This document shows, piece by piece, positions 9,324 through 23,733 of a DNA stretch of 64,000 bases (position 1 is the stretch's first letter; the number at the start of each line of letters is the position of its first letter). This DNA is from Algoriphagus sp. TR-M9 (GTDB taxonomy: Bacteria > Bacteroidota > Bacteroidia > Cytophagales > Cyclobacteriaceae): contig NZ_CP115160.1 of NCBI RefSeq assembly GCF_027594545.1, positions 3,419,001-3,483,000 of the forward strand, given 5' to 3'. The translations under genes and the position numbers were made by a program. The notes under the pieces are model-generated. The model was given only the letters and a program-made list of their open reading frames with translations, searched no databases and was not told where the DNA came from.

Positions 9324-10541
9324 GTGATCCGTATTCTACTCTTCCTAGTTTTTGTATTCCTTATCGATTGGTATTCCTATCAGGCTTTCAAAACAGCTTT
9401 CCCTGAGCAAAACTGGATTAGGATCGTGTTTTGGGTCTTTTCGGTTTTCGTCTATCTCTTTGTAGCCTATGGTTTCCTGACTTTCACCCGGGGAAATCTC
9501 AGCCTGAGCTTTGGAAAAATGATTTCCATACTGGTGTTGTCTCTTATTCCAAAGCTCATCGTCTTGGGTTTTATGTTCGGAGAGGATATCCTGCGTGTAT
9601 TTACCGGGATTTTTTATTCCGTCGCTGGCCACCGAGAAGGTGATTTCCTACCTGACCGGAGAAAATTTATCAGCCAAACAGCCTTAATTCTATCTTCCAT
9701 CCCATTTTTGGGAATTCTACATGGAGTTTTAATCGGCAAATACCGTTATCGTGTCATCAATCACACACTGGAGTTTGATGACCTACCCGAGGAGTTTGAT
9801 GGATTTACGATCACCCAAATCTCAGATATCCATTCCGGGAGTTTTGACAATAAGAAGAAGCTGGAATACGGCATTGAGCTAATCAATCAGCAAAAATCTG
9901 ATGTTATTCTATTTACTGGCGACTTGGTCAATAACCAGGCGGAGGAGATGGAGCCTTGGATAGAGACCTTCAAAAAGCTAGAGGCTCCCATGGGAAAGTA
10001 TTCTATTTTGGGCAATCATGATTATGGAGATTATGTATCATGGCCCAGCAAGGAGGCCAAAGAAGCAAATATGCAGCGGCTTTATGAAATTCAGCGGGAA
10101 TTGGGATTCAAGCTTTTGCGAAATGAAAATATCAAAATCGAAAGACCTGGAGCAAGCATTGACCTGATCGGGGTGGAGAATTGGGGAAAGGGATTTGGAC
10201 AATATGGAGACCTAAAGAAAGCTACAGCAAACCTGAGCGATAAAAGCTTTAAAATCCTGATGAGCCATGATCCCTCACACTTTGATGAAGAAGTAAAGAA
10301 GTTCTCTCAATTTATTCATCTAACCTTGAGTGGCCACACCCATGGAATGCAGTTTGGGATCGAGATCCCTGGTGTTATCAAGTGGAGTCCGGCATCTCTT
10401 CGCTACCCTAAATGGGCGGGATTGTATGAGGAATTGGGACGTTACCTCCACGTCAATCGGGGTTTTGGATTTTTGGCATTTCCGGGAAGAGTTGGAATCT
10501 GGCCGGAGATTACTGTGATTAGGTTGAAGAGTAAGAGGTAG
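9324..10541 (+). CDS. Membrane-anchored calcineurin-like metallophosphoesterase
   Basis: A 405-residue protein with a GTG start. The first 140 residues contain about four hydrophobic segments, and the phosphoesterase domain (from about residue 145) follows. The metal ligands are present in order: QISDIHSGSF, TGDLVNN, LGNHDYGD, SHDPSHF and SGHTHGMQFG. The arrangement is that of the YkuE/YaeI group of membrane phosphoesterases, some of which act on UDP-diacylglucosamine-like lipids; that role is inference. The 3' quarter of this gene is duplicated as a decayed fragment at 11612-11873 beside the CRISPR array. Confidence 0.9.
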   Translation: MIRILLFLVFVFLIDWYSYQAFKTAFPEQNWIRIVFWVFSVFVYLFVAYGFLTFTRGNLSLSFGKMISILVLSLIPKLIVLGFMFGEDILRVFTGIFYSVAGHREGDFLPDRRKFISQTALILSSIPFLGILHGVLIGKYRYRVINHTLEFDDLPEEFDGFTITQISDIHSGSFDNKKKLEYGIELINQQKSDVILFTGDLVNNQAEEMEPWIETFKKLEAPMGKYSILGNHDYGDYVSWPSKEAKEANMQRLYEIQRELGFKLLRNENIKIERPGASIDLIGVENWGKGFGQYGDLKKATANLSDKSFKILMSHDPSHFDEEVKKFSQFIHLTLSGHTHGMQFGIEIPGVIKWSPASLRYPKWAGLYEELGRYLHVNRGFGFLAFPGRVGIWPEITVIRLKSKR

Positions 10542-10796: not shown

Positions 10797-11156
10797 TCAA
10801 ACTCCCAGTACGATAGATGCTTCAATATCAAGCTTACGACTAATTTCTCTGGCAATTTTTAAAGTTGGCTCACTCTTCCCATTTAAATATTCGCTGATAC
10901 GCGAAGTACTCACTCCCAAAAATTCTGATAAAGCTTTTTGAGTTAAACCACGTTCATTCATTCTCAATTTGATCGCTTCAGGTAGAGAAGGTGGCAAAAC
11001 TGTAAAATGAGATTCTTCATAATCAGCAACCATATCCGAAAGTAGATTCAACTCCACAAATCCTTTCGCCTCTGGATTTTCAATATTATCAGCATCAGCA
11101 AGAAGTTCCTCGATCCTTCCCTGAATGGCTTTGTATTCTTTTTCTGATTTAATCAT
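10797..11156 (-). CDS. higA: HigA-type antitoxin, XRE helix-turn-helix
   Basis: A 119-residue protein. Residues about 62-118 form an XRE/Cro helix-turn-helix (MNERGLTQKALSEFLGVSTSRISEYLNG). The N-terminal half is acidic and probably binds the toxin. It starts three bases after the stop of the toxin gene, the toxin-first order typical of higBA. It should neutralise HigB and repress the shared promoter. Confidence 0.9.
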   Translation of the reverse strand: MIKSEKEYKAIQGRIEELLADADNIENPEAKGFVELNLLSDMVADYEESHFTVLPPSLPEAIKLRMNERGLTQKALSEFLGVSTSRISEYLNGKSEPTLKIAREISRKLDIEASIVLGV

Positions 11157-11159
11157 ACC

Positions 11160-11456
11160 TCAAATGTTTTGGATGTCCTTGATTTTATCGTATTCGGCAT
11201 GAGTTCCGATGAACCGGATATAAACTTTCTTTGCATTGAAGGAAATGATTGCAATCAGCCTATAGGAGTTTCCTTTAATATTGAAGACAAATCGATGGTT
11301 CCCAACGTAATCTACCGAGTTGAAATCCTTTTTGATGTCATTTAGAGATTCCCATTCTTTTTTGCTAGTCACGGTGTACCAAAAGCGAAGCGGAGTATCT
11401 GCATCGGCATGTTTCTCTGAAAACTCCTGAATCCGCTTAAAAGTAACAATCCTCAT
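11160..11456 (-). CDS. higB: HigB-type mRNA interferase toxin
   Basis: Started at the ATG at 11456 (MRIVTFKRIQEFSEKHADAD) the product has 98 residues, the normal size for the HigB/RelE-like ribosome-dependent endoribonuclease. Typical features are FWYTVTSKKEWESLNDIKKDF, the central GNHRFVFNIKGNSYRLIAIISF strand region and the terminal FIGTHAEYDKI. The frame could begin 10 codons earlier. It forms a two-gene operon with the antitoxin gene. Confidence 0.9.
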   Translation of the reverse strand: MRIVTFKRIQEFSEKHADADTPLRFWYTVTSKKEWESLNDIKKDFNSVDYVGNHRFVFNIKGNSYRLIAIISFNAKKVYIRFIGTHAEYDKIKDIQNI

Positions 11457-11483
11457 TTCCTTGAGAAATTCTATTTTATAGAA

Positions 11484-11520
11484 CAAAGTTACGGATATTG
11501 TAATTCATTAGCTAATACAA
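11484..11520 (-). promoter_or_regulatory. higBA promoter and likely operator
   Basis: On the minus strand TAACTTTG (11491-11484) matches the TAnnTTTG -7 box. Next to it, TTGTA and TACAA (11498-11520) flank a TTAGCTAA palindrome, a good candidate for the HigA operator. Transcription would begin about 20 nt before the higB start. Confidence 0.5.
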
Positions 11521-11611: not shown

Positions 11612-11873
11612 CAGCTTTAAAATACTCATGAGTCATGATCCTTCCCATTTTGACGAACAGGCGAAAAACTTCTCCCAGTTCATCCATCTTATGCTAAGTG
11701 GGTTTACCCATGGAATGCAGTTTGGGATCGAGATTCCAGGGGTTATCAAATGGAGTCCGGCCTCCCTTCTCTACCCGAAATGGGCTGGACTGTATGAGGA
11801 ACTTGGCCGCTACCTGCATATCAACCGTGGGGTTGGATTCTTGGTCTTTCCAGAGAAGGTGGGGATCTGGCCA
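11612..11873 (+). pseudogene. Decayed 3' fragment of the metallophosphoesterase gene
   Basis: The sequence matches the 3' part of the intact gene at 9324-10541 (about 10250-10505) at nucleotide level and translates as MSHDPSHFDEQAKNFSQFIH and onward. The catalytic SGHTHG motif has become SGFTHG, losing a metal-binding His, and both ends are missing. It stops 12 bp before the first CRISPR repeat. Confidence 0.85.
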
Positions 11874-11885
11874 CCTTAAGAACGT

Positions 11886-15193
<3,308 letters not shown>

Positions 15194-15301
15194 ATACCCC
15201 ACGATAAGTGGCTGGTATGCTGTTTTTTACATCCAAATTTTGAATATAAAAAAATGGACCAGGTTTTGAATTAGAGTCAGTTGCCCTTCGGTTTTAATGA
15301 T

Positions 15302-16531
<1,230 letters not shown>

Positions 16532-16535
<4 letters not shown>

Positions 16536-17008
16536 TTCTTTTTTCGGATATCAGAGATTTTTTTCAAATACTCTACATCGGCTTGATCCTTCAAGCGATT
16601 CGCAAATAATTTGCTGACAATTAAGTCATTGAGTCGTAAAAAGGGAATTTTATAGGCATCCAATTCCAAAAACACGCGATTCTCAAAAGCAGAGTCAAAG
16701 TCAAGCCCTTGTACTTTGCTTAGAAAATCAATTCGTTCCGGTTCCATGCCGATATGAAATACCACTACTTCCCTAAAATCCAATTTTTCCAAAGCCTGAA
16801 TACTTTCCTCATCAAATTCCATTTTTCTGAAAGTATCCAGAAGTTTGCCCTTGTTATGTTCATTAGGCCGAATCCAGATATCCAAATCTCCTGTAGTACG
16901 GACATATCCATGGAATATAACCGCGTAACCTCCAATCAACAAAAATTCAACTTGGTTATCAATCAGGGCAAAAACCATTTCCTGATGGGCTGGATGGGTG
17001 AAGTTCAT
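16532..17008 (-). CDS. Small nucleotidyltransferase embedded in the cas operon
   Basis: A 158-residue protein with the polymerase-beta-type nucleotidyltransferase signature: GGYAV (GG at 26-27), then TGDLDIWI with Asp 41 and Asp 43, and a third acidic residue in ERIDFL (Asp about 94). Such proteins belong to the minimal nucleotidyltransferase/DUF6036/AbiEii-like group, several of which modify tRNA or partner toxins. Its ATG overlaps the cas9 stop, and its TGA overlaps the cas1 ATG, both as ATGA. It is therefore a structural part of the cas9-cas1-cas2 operon rather than a chance neighbour. No HEPN partner is next to it. A role in CRISPR function or as a guard of the locus is inference. Confidence 0.85.
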
Positions 17009-20000
17009 CGATCTAGAATAATTTTCTTACCCTTCCAGTTGGGATCCACAAATTCGTAAAAGCGATTCATCAATTCTGCAAAATCCCTGAACCGCTGATT
17101 GGGATTCTGCATCGCCCAATAGCTCAATTGGGAGTTGCCAGAATCCTCCAAGGATTTTGAGATTTGGATCTTTTTTTCTGTTTTATATGCTGCCATAGGT
17201 TCATTTAATACTGGATTTCCATTTCCTGGGTTTCCATCGGGATCAGTTGGCTTATTGGGAAAAATGATATTTCCCAGTCGATCAACAAGCAATTTGATGC
17301 AAATCGCCTTTTCACCGATAAACTCAATTTTATTTAGTTGAGTATATTCGACCTTATTCGCGATTGATTTAGCAGTGGACATTGGAACCGCATAAAGCCT
17401 AGCTCCAGTAAAACTCACGATTTTATAAATCCTTGCTATTTGATCTTTATCCGAAGAATTAATAGTTCTAACTCCTCCATTTTCAAGTTCCTCATCAGAA
17501 GGAACATAAACCAAATCATTTGGTGAAAGGGTAAATAGCAAAGCCCCTAATTCCGGTTTAGGTTGGATTGGAGTCCGTTGTGCTTTAGGCATATGAGCAA
17601 CTTGCTTTTGATGAGCAATTACTTCATTAAGAGGCACAGTTTCGAAATTCCTTTTCTGTTTACCTTTATCCCAATAGACTGCAAAAAACAAATTCGTCCC
17701 TTTTGCAGCCTCGACGTATTTAGATGTCTTGTTCCCCCTTTCTCCGACTAGAAACTTGGAGCCAACCTCAAACATTTTCACCTTGAAGATTGGCTGGTGG
17801 CACTTACCGTTATTCAACTCTCGGATATTCTTGTTCAAATCTTCTATGCCTTCAGAACTGAATGCACGCTCATAATCTGGTTTATCCTCCCCAGTCCGAT
17901 ATTTTGCCAGATGATTTGGCAGAATAACTTCTCTTATTCTTTCATCAGTGACCTTTGCCAAATGTTTATCTGTTTTGATTTCAGACAATGAAGTCCTTAC
18001 AGCAGTAGCAATCTTGCCTTTAGGCGTATCTATTCTATAAATACCCGAAACAGTCTCTTTGTGTAGTGGCTTTCTTATTGCCCAATTATCACCTTTAGTT
18101 TGCTTTCTCAATTTTTTCTTCGGCTTGCCATTTGAATCCAAATTCAACTCCCCTTCCTCATTTCGGTAGGACCAGAATTTATTATTTGCCTTATTGATCA
18201 CACGAAGGTTTTGCTTAAAACTAATGATGGTTTTCTCCAAGGCATCTTTGGTTTCTATCGTAAAATCTGGCCAAGGCATCAAGAATGTCTTGGTATAGTG
18301 CCCGTATTCATTTTTTATTAAAAGTTTATCTTTCAAGCCGAAATTCTCTTTTTCAGCATTCAAGGCACTTAGATAGTGGGTATGATTTCTTGTTGTACAT
18401 GCAACTACCAATGCATCCAAAGCATGATGTCTATGATCAATACGTTTCACATTAAACCCTTTATTAAACTCCTCCGGAACCTGAATCCTGAAAGCATTGA
18501 TCCTGGAGTCCCAGTTGCCAAAGTCTTCGCTTTGGGTCAATTCATTTAGCCTTTTAAATCGCGGTGCCACTATTTCATTCCATTTGTCATGCAAGCCCCA
18601 ATCTTGCTTTAACTTAGAAGTGATAGTTCCTATTACAGGCACTAAGTTTTTCGAAGTGGCTTCACGTTCTCCATCCTCTCTCACAAGGTTACTTAATAAG
18701 CCCTTGACCAGACTGCTGATATATCTACTGTCATTCATCTGGCGATTGATAAAGCCTTCTGGAATTTCAAGACTCAATAGATTTTTCAGCTTAGCTCTGT
18801 TGGTTCTGAAATACCTATTGACATGATTTTCATATTGGTCTAAACTTAACAATTGGTGGCCACCGACTATACTGCCACCTTTGTTATTGAAATACTCAAA
18901 AGCTGTTTGATTGTCCTTGTCTGAATTTACAGCACTTTCACAAATGATTTTGTTGGTCAAGGAATTGTCAAAATAGCGCGACCTGGGAATTATATGCTCT
19001 ACCTCATATTCGTGTGTAAACAACTTGGTAAGTGGGATAGTCTTTCCAGTATAGGGAGAGATATAACCTTGATCTAGCCAAAGTCTGTACCTTTGTATTT
19101 CCCTTTGGCTAGGAGTGATGTTTCTCCGAATTTTTGAGATTTCGTCTTCGCTTACTTTATCGTACTTTACATCCGGACTTGAGTAAACACCCTCTTCATA
19201 TAACTTCAATAGTTCTTGATGACTAGGAGAAAAAAACCTTATGTCTCCCCTTACTTCCGGATCATCCATCATTTCTTTCAATAGTTCTTTGATCCGATGG
19301 TTGGTGTTTTCATTCTCTGCATTCCTTTTGGCGATTTCTTCTCGCTTTTTAGCTGGGTTCTTCATTTCCCTACCCAATTCCACATGAATTTCATCGAAGA
19401 AATGACCCGCTCCATTGCCATAATATTTCCATATATCCCGAACTACCCGTAGCGTTTCGGTCACTATTTGTTCCACGATAGGGTTCCTCAATGAATGCTG
19501 TTTGAACTCTTTAAGGTATCTATCTATATCATCAGGACTTTTCCATTGTTGTACTTCACCTATTTCTGAATGTCTTTCATAAACCAAGTAAGCAGCTTGA
19601 AAAGTGTTCAGCCCTTTAAGAGGATTTTTGCCTTTGAGTGGAACAAAACTTTTGACCAATTGCTTTGTGATATCATCATCACTCACCTTAGCCAAAGCTT
19701 CTTTATTATCTCTATCGGATGATTCTTTGTTTATCGGCAATGCGTTCACTCTTTCCATGATAGAATCGGCTCGTTCTCTGACAGCTTGAGGAATTATGTC
19801 TTGGCTCCAATACCTCCCCATTCGCATCAGAGGCACGAGTTTTAGCAATGCCTTTTTGGAATAACTTCCATATTCGCTATCGAATGGAGGAAACTTAATG
19901 AAGTTTTCCAGAAACGATTCTTGATCAATCTCATGCTTGCAGGCAAATTTTGTCAAGGCCTTTTTATATTCTTCTATATCGGAAACCGAATAGATAATAT

Positions 20001-21717
20001 GCCATAGCTGCTCTTCTCGACTCAGTAAGGCATTGCCATTTGATGTCTTTTCTGCAAGAAATCTGGCAGGCTCCTCCAATCCTACTACTTTTTCTAGACG
20101 GTTGACAAACTGAACTCTCGTCTCAGCCATTGGATACTTTTTGGACTCCTTCTTCTGATCGTCATAGACGTAATTCCATCTATACTTATCTTTCTGGCTT
20201 TTTTCGATCAATTTCTTTTTGACGAAAAAGTCGATTAACTGTTTAGATTCAATCGTTTGCTTTGTATTCAAAAACTCGAAAAGATCCACGAAAGCATCCT
20301 CATTAGGCAATAGATGTGTGGTTACATCTTCCAGTTTTCCGTTTTCAATTTTTTCAGAATTGAAAATCCTCAAATTCTGGATCCATTGCCACAACCTGAA
20401 TTCTTGATAAAGAGGATGAGACTTTGAAATAACGGGAATAGGCTCAATCTTTCTCTCTATCCTACCTGTCTCGGAGTTTTTCTTTTGAAAAGCTCTCGAC
20501 TCAAACTGACAACCCGAAATATTAGATTTTTGGCTTTTGAGAGGTCTTTGATAAAAAATAATATCCTCTAAAAACAAATGCTCAAAACCTTCCCCTCTCA
20601 ACCTATTTTGATGACCTTCATTTCTAGGATATAGCTCTTCGATACATTCCTGATACAGTTTAACCGAAAATAGCGCAGGTTGCAATTCAATCTGCTTGGA
20701 TAATATCTTTCCGAGCTCAGACTTATAAAATTTTCTCTCGACTGTTTTGACCAGTTTTCCCCTTATCTTTTGCTTAGGATCCCGCAAAAGTGTATCATAA
20801 ATATATTCACCAACTGTCTTTCCAGACTGTTCAATATCCTGCTCTGTCTTAGCTTTGATGGCTATCCAGTCCTTTTCTGAATCTACCGATTTATAGGAAT
20901 ACTTAGTTTCGCCACTTTTCAATGTCGAAATAGTCACAATAAACTCTTTGGACCTCCCTACCCAATCTTCTATCTTGGTGATCTGTCGATCATATGGCCA
21001 CCCATTTTCAAAAACAACATCGTAAAGAATCTTTCCTTTGACTTTTTCACCCGAATCCAAAACCGATTTGACTTTCAGAACGACAAACCTCCTGTCTCTC
21101 TTCTCTTCTACTTCTTCCCCCCTCAATTGATAATAACCCCTCTTCTGATTAAAATTAAGAATCAGCCATGCGAACTCCTCTTTGCTGATTTTCTCTCGAA
21201 GAGCTTTCTTTCTTAAATAATATATAGTCCAATCATAGGGAATTTTGGTTTCCTCTCCGTTGGACTTTGTATAGAATAACTCTGGTCGCGCATTTTGAAA
21301 CTCCTCGACCATTTCATGAAAGGAATTCATAAAAAGAAAATCATTTTTCCCTAATTCATTCCTCCTGTAATTCAGTTTAACCTCAGTCTCGTTCTTAAAC
21401 TGACCCAACTTCTTTTGAAAATCGATGCCATCAGCATAGTGTTCTGGTAAAAATCCCAAAACATTCAATACTCGGTGTAGCCTATCTCTCCTTAAATTGT
21501 CTCGCTCATATAACCTTCGAATCCCCCTATATCCTGTTCTTTCAGCAGTTTGCGAAAAAGATTGGCCGGCATCAAATTTACCCAACACATCCTGCCCCAT
21601 GGGTATTATCCTTACACCCATCCCATCTATCTTACCTTCCTTCTTTTCAAAATCCTGCGAAATCAAGCTCCATCCAATCGAATTAGTCCCCAAATCCAGT
21701 CCTAAAATCTTTTTCAT
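17005..21717 (-). CDS. cas9: CRISPR-associated endonuclease Cas9, type II-C
   Basis: A 1570-residue effector nuclease, large for II-C but in the range of Bacteroidota enzymes. RuvC-I is at the N-terminus (KKILGLDLGTNSIGWSL, Asp 8). The arginine-rich bridge helix follows around RGIRRLYERDNLRRDRLHR. RuvC-II is FFDEIHVELGREM (Glu about 780). The HNH domain has EHIIPRSRYFDNSLTNK (His about 908). RuvC-III is HHALDALVVA (His about 1098, Asp about 1101). The PAM-interacting C-terminal region follows. All catalytic residues are present. The gene leads the cas operon and diverges from the tracrRNA gene. Confidence 0.97.
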   Translation of the reverse strand: MKKILGLDLGTNSIGWSLISQDFEKKEGKIDGMGVRIIPMGQDVLGKFDAGQSFSQTAERTGYRGIRRLYERDNLRRDRLHRVLNVLGFLPEHYADGIDFQKKLGQFKNETEVKLNYRRNELGKNDFLFMNSFHEMVEEFQNARPELFYTKSNGEETKIPYDWTIYYLRKKALREKISKEEFAWLILNFNQKRGYYQLRGEEVEEKRDRRFVVLKVKSVLDSGEKVKGKILYDVVFENGWPYDRQITKIEDWVGRSKEFIVTISTLKSGETKYSYKSVDSEKDWIAIKAKTEQDIEQSGKTVGEYIYDTLLRDPKQKIRGKLVKTVERKFYKSELGKILSKQIELQPALFSVKLYQECIEELYPRNEGHQNRLRGEGFEHLFLEDIIFYQRPLKSQKSNISGCQFESRAFQKKNSETGRIERKIEPIPVISKSHPLYQEFRLWQWIQNLRIFNSEKIENGKLEDVTTHLLPNEDAFVDLFEFLNTKQTIESKQLIDFFVKKKLIEKSQKDKYRWNYVYDDQKKESKKYPMAETRVQFVNRLEKVVGLEEPARFLAEKTSNGNALLSREEQLWHIIYSVSDIEEYKKALTKFACKHEIDQESFLENFIKFPPFDSEYGSYSKKALLKLVPLMRMGRYWSQDIIPQAVRERADSIMERVNALPINKESSDRDNKEALAKVSDDDITKQLVKSFVPLKGKNPLKGLNTFQAAYLVYERHSEIGEVQQWKSPDDIDRYLKEFKQHSLRNPIVEQIVTETLRVVRDIWKYYGNGAGHFFDEIHVELGREMKNPAKKREEIAKRNAENENTNHRIKELLKEMMDDPEVRGDIRFFSPSHQELLKLYEEGVYSSPDVKYDKVSEDEISKIRRNITPSQREIQRYRLWLDQGYISPYTGKTIPLTKLFTHEYEVEHIIPRSRYFDNSLTNKIICESAVNSDKDNQTAFEYFNNKGGSIVGGHQLLSLDQYENHVNRYFRTNRAKLKNLLSLEIPEGFINRQMNDSRYISSLVKGLLSNLVREDGEREATSKNLVPVIGTITSKLKQDWGLHDKWNEIVAPRFKRLNELTQSEDFGNWDSRINAFRIQVPEEFNKGFNVKRIDHRHHALDALVVACTTRNHTHYLSALNAEKENFGLKDKLLIKNEYGHYTKTFLMPWPDFTIETKDALEKTIISFKQNLRVINKANNKFWSYRNEEGELNLDSNGKPKKKLRKQTKGDNWAIRKPLHKETVSGIYRIDTPKGKIATAVRTSLSEIKTDKHLAKVTDERIREVILPNHLAKYRTGEDKPDYERAFSSEGIEDLNKNIRELNNGKCHQPIFKVKMFEVGSKFLVGERGNKTSKYVEAAKGTNLFFAVYWDKGKQKRNFETVPLNEVIAHQKQVAHMPKAQRTPIQPKPELGALLFTLSPNDLVYVPSDEELENGGVRTINSSDKDQIARIYKIVSFTGARLYAVPMSTAKSIANKVEYTQLNKIEFIGEKAICIKLLVDRLGNIIFPNKPTDPDGNPGNGNPVLNEPMAAYKTEKKIQISKSLEDSGNSQLSYWAMQNPNQRFRDFAELMNRFYEFVDPNWKGKKIILDR

Positions 21718-21723
21718 ATTATT

Positions 21724-21752
21724 TTGAAAGTCTATTGTTTCTACTTACTTTG
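21724..21752 (+). promoter_or_regulatory. Putative tracrRNA promoter
   Basis: A TTG at 21724-21726 and TACTTTG at 21746-21752, 19 bp apart, approximate the Bacteroidota promoter; the -7 element is one base short of TAnnTTTG. The right half touches the extended anti-repeat, so transcription may start within it. Confidence 0.4.
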
Positions 21753-21840
21753 AGTAACTGATTTAAAAGCAATTCACAATAAGGATTATTCCGTTGTGAA
21801 AACATGTAGTGCCTCGGCTATCTCCGGGGCTTTTCTTTTT
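21752..21840 (+). ncRNA. tracrRNA of the type II-C system
   Basis: The anti-repeat core (21760-21779, GATTTAAAAGCAATTCACAA) is complementary to the first 20 nt of the CRISPR repeat with one mismatch, and complementarity extends to 21752 with a one-base bulge. The tail has a nexus-like GGATTATTCC stem and then a GCCTCGG/CCGGGGC hairpin followed by TTTTCTTTTT, a Rho-independent terminator. It directs crRNA maturation and binds Cas9. Confidence 0.9.
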
Positions 21841-22352
21841 AATCCCATTATTTTCTCTCCAAATCAAGAATTTCTGACAGCTTTTCGCCTTGGATTTCAA
21901 ACATAAATTATCCGGACAAGTCACTGAAGCAGCTCCTACCACTAAAGTTTCTAGTAACCTGAAGAAAGTTGATTATTTCCAAAACCTTAGTGGCTGAATG
22001 CAAGAAAAGGAATAAAAAGACATGAAAACATACCCTGTACAGGGTATTTTGTTGGAAAATAATAGGTATTTCAAAGAAATTACGATGCTTTTCAGACTAT
22101 TGGCAGAATTTTCTGAACCCCATTTTGTCAAGTTGAAATCAAAAAGTTCCTTATCGCCATTACTGATTTTAGGCAAAATTTCATTTCGACTGGCTGGCTG
22201 AGATTTGAAATACCAGCCCCGGATGAATGATAAATCCAGGTGTCTATTTGAACATTGCTATGAATTGATTTTCGAATGTATAAAACACCCTACATCGGGC
22301 ACTTTTTTTTCTAAAAGTCTTTGCTCACTGACATCTCAATAAGACCAATTAC
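21841..22352. other. Gene-free region with a palindromic repeat
   Basis: About 510 bp between the tracrRNA and an XRE gene. It contains the perfect 16-bp palindrome TACCCTGTACAGGGTA at 22031-22046. I see no convincing gene; the short frame at 21973-22176 on the minus strand has no recognisable features. Confidence 0.5.
22005..22053. repeat. Dispersed repeat with TACCCTGTACAGGGTA palindrome
   Basis: The palindrome at 22031-22046 is preceded by GCAAGAAAAGGAATA. Both features recur together at 59216-59254 and 60682-60700, where the palindrome is split by an IS3-family insertion. Confidence 0.55.
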
Positions 22353-22757
22353 TTACTTCTCCAACATCCTCTTCATAATCTCAACCTTCTCCCGCTCCGA
22401 TTCCAACAGCCGCTCGTAGAGCTTTTTGTTTTCTTCAAGTGCTTCTACCCATTTGTCGATTGGATTAAAATTTAAAGAACATTGATTATTTATAGATCCT
22501 GCATTATCATGAAGAGTACTCGAAATAATGTTTATGGCATGCTCTTCTGAAAAACTCTTAATCGCCTCCGCAGGTACTTTTAAGATCTCGGCCACCTGCC
22601 TCAGCAGGTCCTCCTCCACTTCTTCCTTTTGCTCCAGTAAACTGACCTTCTTCTGAGACCAGTCCTCCCCCAGTTCAAAAGCCAAGGCCTCTTGCTTGAT
22701 GCCCATCATTTCCCTGAATCTCTTGATATTTCTGCCGTGGTGGATCTTCTCGTTCAT
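22353..22757 (-). CDS. XRE-family transcriptional regulator
   Basis: A 134-residue protein. The N-terminal 65 residues are a Cro/C1-type helix-turn-helix (HGRNIKRFREMMGIKQEALAFEL and the recognition region around WSQKKVSLLEQ). The C-terminal 40 residues (EALEENKKLYERLLESEREK) form a likely coiled coil for dimerisation. It diverges from the gene cluster at 23191 and may control it, but no operator is evident. Confidence 0.82.
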   Translation of the reverse strand: MNEKIHHGRNIKRFREMMGIKQEALAFELGEDWSQKKVSLLEQKEEVEEDLLRQVAEILKVPAEAIKSFSEEHAINIISSTLHDNAGSINNQCSLNFNPIDKWVEALEENKKLYERLLESEREKVEIMKRMLEK

Positions 22758-23190
22758 AGTCTGCTAAGTGTATTGGAAAATAGAAAATTCTATTCTAAGT
22801 CCTCTAACTAAATTATTCCATTTCTGGGAATGGAACAAGGATATCGCCGGAATGATTAAAAAATCCTGACAAAATATGTCGTATGGGTACCAATTCTAAA
22901 TGATATCGGCCTTGCCTACGCCATTTTTGAAATCCTATCAAAACCCATATTCCAGCTATTGAAATGACCGGCTAGCGCATCGCTCATGCCTACGGCATTA
23001 TTCCCACCATATCATTTATCAGTCCCAAAGGGACGGAAGATATAATTTGTCGAATTCTATCGGTTACCTGCGTCCTTTTTGCCTGGGCATGAATATTTTA
23101 TCCCAACCCCCTTTCTAAACTATCCCTTTTCGGAATACCCTATCCCAAGGCTATTCATCAATTTGAAACCATCACAAAATAAAAAACCAA
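22758..23190. other. Intergenic region with small palindromes
   Basis: Contains a GTCCCAAAGGGAC hairpin near 23023, a form common in Bacteroidota interspersed repeats, and an ATGCCTACGGCAT palindrome near 22988. No gene is seen before 23191. Confidence 0.4.
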
Positions 23191-23451
23191 ATGGAACTCA
23201 ACTTGCACCTTCATCTCTCCGACATCTACTACTCCCCTATTTCATTGGGAGAATCTATTTCCTCTATTCTTCAATCAAACCCATCCCTAACCTTGGAATA
23301 TTTGCTACAGGCACTCGAAATCAACCGGGCACTGATTGCAGCGATGAATAAAGACTGGGCCTCAGAATCTGAAATGTACAGCACTGTTCAGGCTTTGGTC
23401 AACAAACAGAAAGAACTGGAATATCAAGTCAGTCAATTACTCAATCCCTAA
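23191..23451 (+). CDS. Hypothetical protein, first gene of the HEPN cluster
   Basis: An 86-residue, mostly helical soluble protein beginning MELNLHLHLSDIYYSPISLG. No family is recognised. It lies three bases before the next gene, so it is probably the first gene of a four-gene unit ending at 25038. The frame is compact and codon use fits its neighbours. Confidence 0.55.
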   Translation: MELNLHLHLSDIYYSPISLGESISSILQSNPSLTLEYLLQALEINRALIAAMNKDWASESEMYSTVQALVNKQKELEYQVSQLLNP

Positions 23452-23454
23452 ACT

Positions 23455-23733
23455 ATGGAAAACACTTTTAGCACCTGCCGGAAAGCCTTCTGCTGCAGCA
23501 ATCAGCACCAGGCATTTGTCACCTTAAAAGAACTCTTTCAGAATATTGGAGACATTACACACTGGATCAGAAAAATAGAGGAGATACAATGGGCCGTATT
23601 CAACCATGAAATTGACTTTGAAAAGTCACCCCCTGACTCCATGATCTATTCTGGCCAACTCATCCTAAAAATCATTTATTCTGGAATTCATTTACAGGAA
23701 TTCCCAGAGATAAAAAAGCATGACCTATCCTGA
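23455..23733 (+). CDS. Hypothetical protein, second gene of the HEPN cluster
   Basis: A 92-residue protein beginning MENTFSTCRKAFCCSNQHQA, with four Cys or His residues near the N-terminus and a helical remainder. No family is recognised. It follows the previous gene by three bases and precedes the next by about 30. It could be an intact small protein or a fragment of a longer decayed gene. Confidence 0.5.
   Translation: MENTFSTCRKAFCCSNQHQAFVTLKELFQNIGDITHWIRKIEEIQWAVFNHEIDFEKSPPDSMIYSGQLILKIIYSGIHLQEFPEIKKHDLS

What the first reader, a model, noticed from the sequence alone, without database searches (positions are those of the whole stretch)
16532..17008. Nucleotidyltransferase gene embedded between cas9 and cas1 by two ATGA overlaps
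Seen: a 158-residue protein with GG, DLD and a third acidic residue lies between cas9 and cas1, sharing ATGA with both. Known: type II-C operons normally contain only cas9, cas1 and cas2; minimal nucleotidyltransferases modify tRNA or act in toxin-antitoxin pairs. Inference: the enzyme is co-translated with Cas9 and Cas1 and may be an accessory factor, for example modifying RNA, sensing infection, or making loss of the locus costly.
Basis: partly seen in the sequence, partly recalled or inferred. Interest (0 to 1): 0.78.

Follow-up and report, generated by a model that had tools for sequence, protein, structure and literature searches.

The report
Cas9 wearing an antitoxin-like tail
In this bacterium the CRISPR enzyme Cas9 ends in a small extra protein that in many relatives is a separate gene right before a nucleotidyltransferase gene, and here that nucleotidyltransferase gene follows directly behind cas9; the tail is predicted to keep the enzyme, a likely toxin, switched off, so that losing Cas9 would likely poison the cell.

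Summary
The 13 nearest Cas9s read end 0-11 residues after a DRLGNI-like motif; here 86 residues follow it. That tail matches, over its full length, a roughly 60-105 aa protein encoded directly upstream of this NTase family in loci without cas genes. So a two-gene module (small partner + NTase) sits between cas9 and cas1, its first gene fused in frame to cas9. Seven other genomes have the module before cas1; in six it is fused to Cas9, in one it is unfused with cas9 off the contig. A profile of 30 stand-alone partners separates 10 fused from 61 other Cas9 C-termini. Fused Cas9s are scattered on the Cas9 tree; tail and NTase vary together while Cas9 bodies are exchanged. By fold, the NTase is closest to the tRNA-modifying toxin MenT1, with matching active-site residues. 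Likely mechanism (inferred): the tail is an antitoxin, so Cas9 itself keeps the toxin off and losing Cas9 frees it. Toxicity, neutralisation and any effect on immunity are untested.

The parts
17266..21717 (-). cas9, body (residues 1-1484): RuvC, bridge helix, HNH, RuvC-III; ends at DRLGNI, near where related Cas9s stop
   Evidence: (TIGR01865 E 8.2e-121)
17005..17265 (-). cas9 C-terminal tail (residues 1485-1570): linker plus partner module; the module proper starts near residue 1505 (NEP motif, about 17205)
   Evidence: stand-alone-partner profile E 4.6e-22
16532..17008 (-). DUF6036 nucleotidyltransferase, 158 aa; G26 G27, T39, D41, D43, D94, K133, D144; MenT1-like fold
17005..17008 (-). ATGA overlap cas9 / NTase
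16532..16535 (-). ATGA overlap NTase / cas1
15642..16535 (-). cas1 (type II, TIGR03639)
15302..15694 (-). cas2 (ORF as listed from TTG; the real start may lie further in)
11886..15193 (.). CRISPR array: 44 repeats of 46 nt at spacings of 75-76 nt, hence 43 spacers of 29-30 nt
21757..21779 (.). candidate tracrRNA anti-repeat (22 of 23 positions match the repeat, opposite strand), just upstream of cas9

Best explanation
This is a type II-C CRISPR-Cas9 operon whose Cas9 carries, fused to its C-terminus, the small first protein of a two-gene nucleotidyltransferase module, with the nucleotidyltransferase gene directly behind it; the tail is predicted to be an antitoxin that holds a MenT1-like, likely tRNA-modifying toxin inactive, so that cells that lose Cas9 would likely be poisoned. 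Shown by sequence: the fusion, the gene order, recurrence in other genomes, exchange of tails between Cas9 bodies, covariation of tail with NTase, conserved active site. Inferred: the NTase adds nucleotides to tRNA 3' ends and stops translation; the tail binds it, perhaps driving auto-phosphorylation at T39 as reported for MenA1/MenT1; coupled translation supplies antitoxin-bearing Cas9 together with toxin; deletion, truncation or degradation of Cas9 leaves toxin unopposed. This would make the CRISPR locus hard to lose and might turn an attack on Cas9 into abortive infection.
Confidence: 0.5

Rival explanations
1. Docking model: the tail is a landing pad that brings the NTase to Cas9, where the NTase works for immunity by adding nucleotides to crRNA, tracrRNA or cut target ends, or by nucleotidylating Cas9; no poisoning is involved.
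For: A covalent tail and tight gene coupling suit recruitment; the active site is conserved; tail and NTase covary, which any obligate pair would do, and cas1 covaries too.
Against: The module is common without cas genes: 41 of 48 fetched NTase regions show neither cas9 nor cas1 (at least 27 of these have 4 kb or more upstream and 1.5 kb or more downstream), so its basic job does not need Cas9; the closest solved relative is a tRNA-targeting toxin.
Confidence: 0.25
2. Hitch-hiking: a selfish toxin-antitoxin module has repeatedly settled between cas9 and cas1 and its first gene ran into cas9 by loss of the stop codon; the fusion keeps the module but does nothing for CRISPR.
For: Stand-alone modules are numerous, occur in tandem (L171) and decay (7 broken NTases of 126 loci); L170 shows the module before cas1 but unfused.
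Against: Fusion in 7 of 8 cas-linked genomes with the NTase frame open in all 8, scattered over the Cas9 tree, and tails re-sorted near one point (DRLGNI), suggest that the fused state is favoured.
Confidence: 0.17
3. Reverse polarity: the NTase is the antitoxin and modifies the small protein, as MntA does to HepT; the Cas9 tail would then be the harmful part.
For: Minimal NTases can be antitoxins (MntA, PMC7641770; title and abstract start in the listing only).
Against: The partner has no Pfam match over cut-off (6 partners scanned); of 7 broken NTases 5 keep an intact partner ORF, odd if the partner were the toxin; fusing a toxin to Cas9 is hard to explain.
Confidence: 0.04

Closest known systems
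MenAT1 (MenT1 nucleotidyltransferase toxin with MenA1 antitoxin; PMC10435456 and PMC11375011, passages seen)
   Same: Small protein encoded upstream of a minimal NTase; NTase fold and T39/D41/D43/K/D active site; antitoxin of 68 aa made of two helices.
   Different: Antitoxin is free, not fused to a CRISPR effector; no detectable sequence similarity between partner and any PDB antitoxin; the window NTase matches DUF6036/DUF2204 and not the AbiEii model at E <= 1.
CreTA and CrePA (CRISPR-guarding toxin-antitoxin systems; PMC12737573 passages, PMC9458426 abstract, PMC10097628 abstract start in a listing)
   Same: Same proposed logic: the CRISPR effector keeps a toxin off, so losing or disabling the effector frees it.
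   Different: There the antitoxin is a crRNA-like RNA used by the effector of type I systems; here it would be a protein domain of Cas9 in a type II system.
Type II-C CRISPR-Cas9
   Same: cas9-cas1-cas2, array, candidate anti-repeat.
   Different: 86-residue partner tail on Cas9 and an NTase gene between cas9 and cas1.
AbiE (AbiEi/AbiEii; PMC3985639, listing only)
   Same: NTase as toxin of a two-gene phage-defence system.
   Different: Long AbiEi antitoxin (recalled); no CRISPR link.

Membership tests
Type II-C CRISPR-Cas9 | Cas9 with RuvC, bridge helix and HNH | tested here: met
   motifs at residues 7, 778, 905, 1093 (motif roles recalled)
Type II-C CRISPR-Cas9 | type II cas1 and cas2 present | tested here: met
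   TIGR03639 E 4.9e-88, TIGR01573 E 3.1e-19
Type II-C CRISPR-Cas9 | no csn2 or cas4 | tested here: inconclusive
   of the 80+ aa ORFs between array and 22757, those scanned are cas9, NTase, cas1, cas2 and an HTH protein; two ORFs antiparallel to cas9/NTase were not scanned; no separate csn2/cas4 search
Type II-C CRISPR-Cas9 | array and tracrRNA | tested here: inconclusive
   array met: 44 repeats; only an anti-repeat candidate at 21757-21779, tracrRNA not modelled
DUF6036 nucleotidyltransferases (PF19502) | score over curated cut-off, GG and DxD | tested here: met
   35.2 against 23.6 bits
MenAT / AbiE toxin-antitoxin | toxin in the DUF1814/AbiEii family (PF08843; equation of the two names recalled) | tested here: inconclusive
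   no PF08843 match at E <= 1 for the window NTase; L199 0.0027, under cut-off; three relatives in the listing carry a precomputed PF08843 (P0018, P0039, P0045); fold and profile match MenT1. So: works like, distantly related, not filed as a member
MenAT / AbiE toxin-antitoxin | antitoxin homologous to MenA1 | tested here: inconclusive
   profile of 38 partners and tails finds no antitoxin among PDB sequences; no Foldseek match
MenAT / AbiE toxin-antitoxin | NTase toxic alone, relieved by partner; tRNA 3' extension | not testable with these tools
   needs experiment
CreTA | crRNA-like antitoxin from degenerate repeats acting through Cascade | tested here: inconclusive
   only the array end and the anti-repeat resemble the repeat well in 15151-23500; system is type II

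The most novel reading that the evidence does not exclude
Cas9 itself is the antitoxin: a protein-based, covalently built guard of a type II CRISPR system in which a toxin-neutralising domain has been welded onto Cas9 repeatedly and is swapped between unrelated Cas9 bodies as a tail-plus-toxin cassette, so that any loss, truncation, degradation or inactivation of Cas9 sets free a tRNA-modifying toxin.
Probability: 0.42. Interest if true: 0.93.

Novelty: new variant of a known kind. Interest (0 to 1): 0.86.

Why it matters
How CRISPR systems are kept despite their cost is an open question. RNA-based guards (CreTA) are known for type I; a 2025 review asks whether similar mechanisms exist in other CRISPR types (PMC12737573, passage). 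This locus offers a concrete, testable protein-based guard for Cas9 with natural controls: tail-less Cas9s, an apparently unfused intermediate (L170), nearly the same Cas9 with different tails (L190/L175), and nearly the same tail on different Cas9s (P0122/P0124). If true, it would also matter for anti-CRISPR biology (attack on Cas9 as a trigger) and as a genetic way to hold Cas9 in a cell. In 10 text searches I saw no Cas9-antitoxin fusion or Cas9-linked NTase of this kind; only open-licence PMC is held, and for I saw just the top 10-15 of 22-280 papers.

Tried and rejected
Rejected: 'lone NTase inserted between cas genes' (the partner is in the Cas9 tail); 'the cas9-NTase ATGA shows adaptation to the cas operon' (that overlap is common in stand-alone pairs); filing as MenAT/AbiE (family test inconclusive, partner unrelated as far as seen).

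Led nowhere: PADLOC and NCBIfam gave no match for the NTase at E <= 1; IMG/VR scans with NTase and partner alignments found no relative; the one genome-contig scan gave a single distant relative (L061); the partner model has no PDB match. MntA/HepT did not appear among the 50 VIA-align rows, which proves nothing. Whether contig C56 of G1162 (L250, a Cas9 of 1795 codons) is the missing cas9 of L170 could not be settled. Contexts of the closest NTases P0002-P0017 are unknown; P0018 and Cas9 P0123 are linked only by equal contig length (7183) and source. Genus searches around four cas-linked genomes had matches in 3 of 4, 1 of 2, 1 of 1 and 1 of 1 genomes, all known loci except a 30% match in G1432 that I did not follow up.

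Rows left out: NTase tree: frames under 140 aa, L009, and all but six of L004-L030; 11 of its 66 rows have unknown context. Cas9 tree: L043, L231 (same as L199) and ORFs under 1100 aa; FastTree only, so support is local. L043, L231, L235 left out; L242, L244, L253 run off the contig. Searches fetched 38 chosen high-scoring places plus G028 and G100, not all matches; 13 of the 40 no-cas regions measured have short flanks. NTase matches were listed only at strict E-values. The pair spacings come from a search limited to ORFs ending -12 to +25 nt from the NTase start: 65 of 77 entries had one. Against many origins: the AU test rejects one NTase clade only at p 0.026, and for six of the nine rows not at all (p 0.171).

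Full report
WHAT IS THERE. On the minus strand: cas9 (21717-17005, 1570 aa), NTase (17008-16532, 158 aa), cas1 (16535-15642), cas2 (15694-15302); below them a 44-repeat array (11886-15193). The NTase shares ATGA with both neighbours. It is DUF6036/DUF2204 and the only match in its 4.8-Mb genome at E <= 0.001. No call names the genome; the five relatives that the listing names with an organism are all Bacteroidota, so I take the window to be Bacteroidota too (inference).

THE CAS9 TAIL. Thirteen nearest Cas9s (L032-L042, L044, L045) end 0-11 residues after a DRLGNI-like motif. The window Cas9 goes on for 86 residues: a linker, then NEP..YKTEKKIQISKSLEDSGNSQLSYWAMQNPNQRFRDFAELMNRFYEF..KKIILDR. 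A search with this region among whole proteins found three more Cas9s (P0122, P0123, P0124). A search with the four tails alone found nine proteins of 71-89 aa; P0125 may itself be the end of a Cas9. Upstream of NTase homologues lies just such a small ORF. A profile of 30 stand-alone partners, without any fused tail (8 of the 30 had been found by searching with tails, 22 by their place before an NTase), scores 10 of 10 fused C-termini at E 1.8e-28 to 1e-07, and the best of 61 other Cas9 C-termini at 0.029. A profile of 38 partners and tails finds an upstream ORF (E <= 0.01) in 38 of 48 loci that were not in it, one of them the fused Cas9 of L199, against 1 of 51 control ORFs, that one being the partner of a tandem module.

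RECURRENCE. Of 48 regions fetched around NTase hits (8, 40), 7 are cas-linked: L120, L170, L175, L190, L192, L193, L199; the other 41 show neither cas9 nor cas1. With the window that makes eight genomes. In seven the partner is fused to Cas9 (in L193 only the last part of Cas9 is on the contig). In L170 a 90-aa partner ORF starts inside, and in another frame from, what looks like a Cas9 end at the contig edge, so it appears unfused. cas1 follows in all eight: overlapping by ATGA in window, L170, L190 and L193, 22 nt on in L199, and behind another ORF in L120 (HIRAN), L175 (weak Y1_Tnp match, under cut-off) and L192 (unknown). The linkage is rare: in family f1, 44 of 196 genomes have a Cas9 match and 88 an NTase match, but only in G000 do the two lie together (places compared by eye, many assemblies are fragmented). 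In the class sample 50 of 188 genomes have a Cas9 over cut-off. One Cas9 locus from each was checked, with flanks of varying length; for G000 this was its second, untailed Cas9. NTase was adjacent only in G1133; G1162 has its NTase next to cas1 on another contig.

MANY ORIGINS OR MUCH EXCHANGE. On a Cas9 tree of 62 rows (columns filled in under 30% of rows dropped) the 9 fused rows need 8 changes, at least 7 forced by starred branches (FastTree). On an NTase tree of 66 rows the 9 cas-linked rows need 5 changes, at least 3 forced; one clade is rejected at p 0.026. The seam is at DRLGNI: P0122/P0124 share 40% of the body and 83 of 88 tail residues; L190/L192 35% and 61%; L190/L175 87% and 49%. 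Within one genus L190 and L193 share 31% of the last part of the body but 79% of the tail and 87% of the NTase. Over 7 loci tail and NTase identities correlate (rho 0.72, exact Mantel p 0.022), tail and body do not (rho -0.41). cas1 also correlates with tail (rho 0.57, p 0.031) and NTase (rho 0.57, p 0.020) but not with the body (rho 0.03, p 0.40). So tail and NTase, and perhaps cas1 with them, travel together while Cas9 bodies are exchanged.

THE PARTNER AS ANTITOXIN (INFERRED). MenA1 is a 68-aa protein encoded upstream of MenT1, a long and a short helix that block the toxin. The partner is a roughly 60-105 aa protein upstream of the NTase, with two predicted helices (tail model residues 39-52 and 55-69, pLDDT 76). 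No sequence or fold match to MenA1 or any other solved antitoxin was found, so this is an analogy of layout. In a search limited to ORFs ending -12 to +25 nt from the NTase start, 65 of 77 entries had one, and 21 of the 57 not linked to cas overlap by exactly 4 nt. Of 126 NTase loci 101 have a detected partner ORF; 7 NTases are broken, 5 of them with the partner intact; 23 intact NTases have no detected partner.

MECHANISM. Most likely: cas9-tail and NTase are translated together; the tail of Cas9 binds NTase and keeps it off; when cas9 is lost or cut short, or Cas9 is degraded, NTase is unopposed, blocks tRNA 3' ends and stops growth. The result would be addiction to the CRISPR locus and possibly abortive infection upon attack on Cas9. 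The gene facts are shown; each functional step is inferred. CreTA and CrePA have the same logic with RNA antitoxins in type I systems (PMC12737573, passages; PMC9458426, abstract). Altae-Tran et al. mention toxin-antitoxin modules near cas genes in general (PMC10910872, passages).

VERDICT. A real and recurrent architecture, new as far as these searches reach; strong on anatomy and evolution, open on function.

Noticed in passing
window 10797-11486: HigB-like toxin (PF09907, E 2.5e-33) and HTH protein pair, 400 nt from the low-coordinate end of the array.
   Followed up: no
window 11628-11879 and 9324-10541: By eye, the 83-aa ORF next to the array repeats the C-terminus of the metallophosphoesterase at 9324-10541: a partial duplication flanking the HigB pair (not aligned).
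   Followed up: no
window 22353-22757: HTH protein upstream of cas9 on the same strand, like PADLOC HTH_VI (E 1.6e-08); possible regulator.
   Followed up: no
G000:C1:4711196-4714966 (L224): The same genome carries a second, distant cas9 without a tail.
   Followed up: partly
L120:5888-6628 and L193:2701-3564: HIRAN-domain proteins sit beside the fused cas loci in two genomes, between NTase and cas1 or behind cas2.
   Followed up: partly
L171:966-2620: Two diverged partner-NTase modules in tandem, without cas genes in the fetched region.
   Followed up: no
P0133: One stand-alone partner cluster (88 aa, named Cyclobacteriaceae) is on 54 contigs, against 1-4 for the other eight listed.
   Followed up: no
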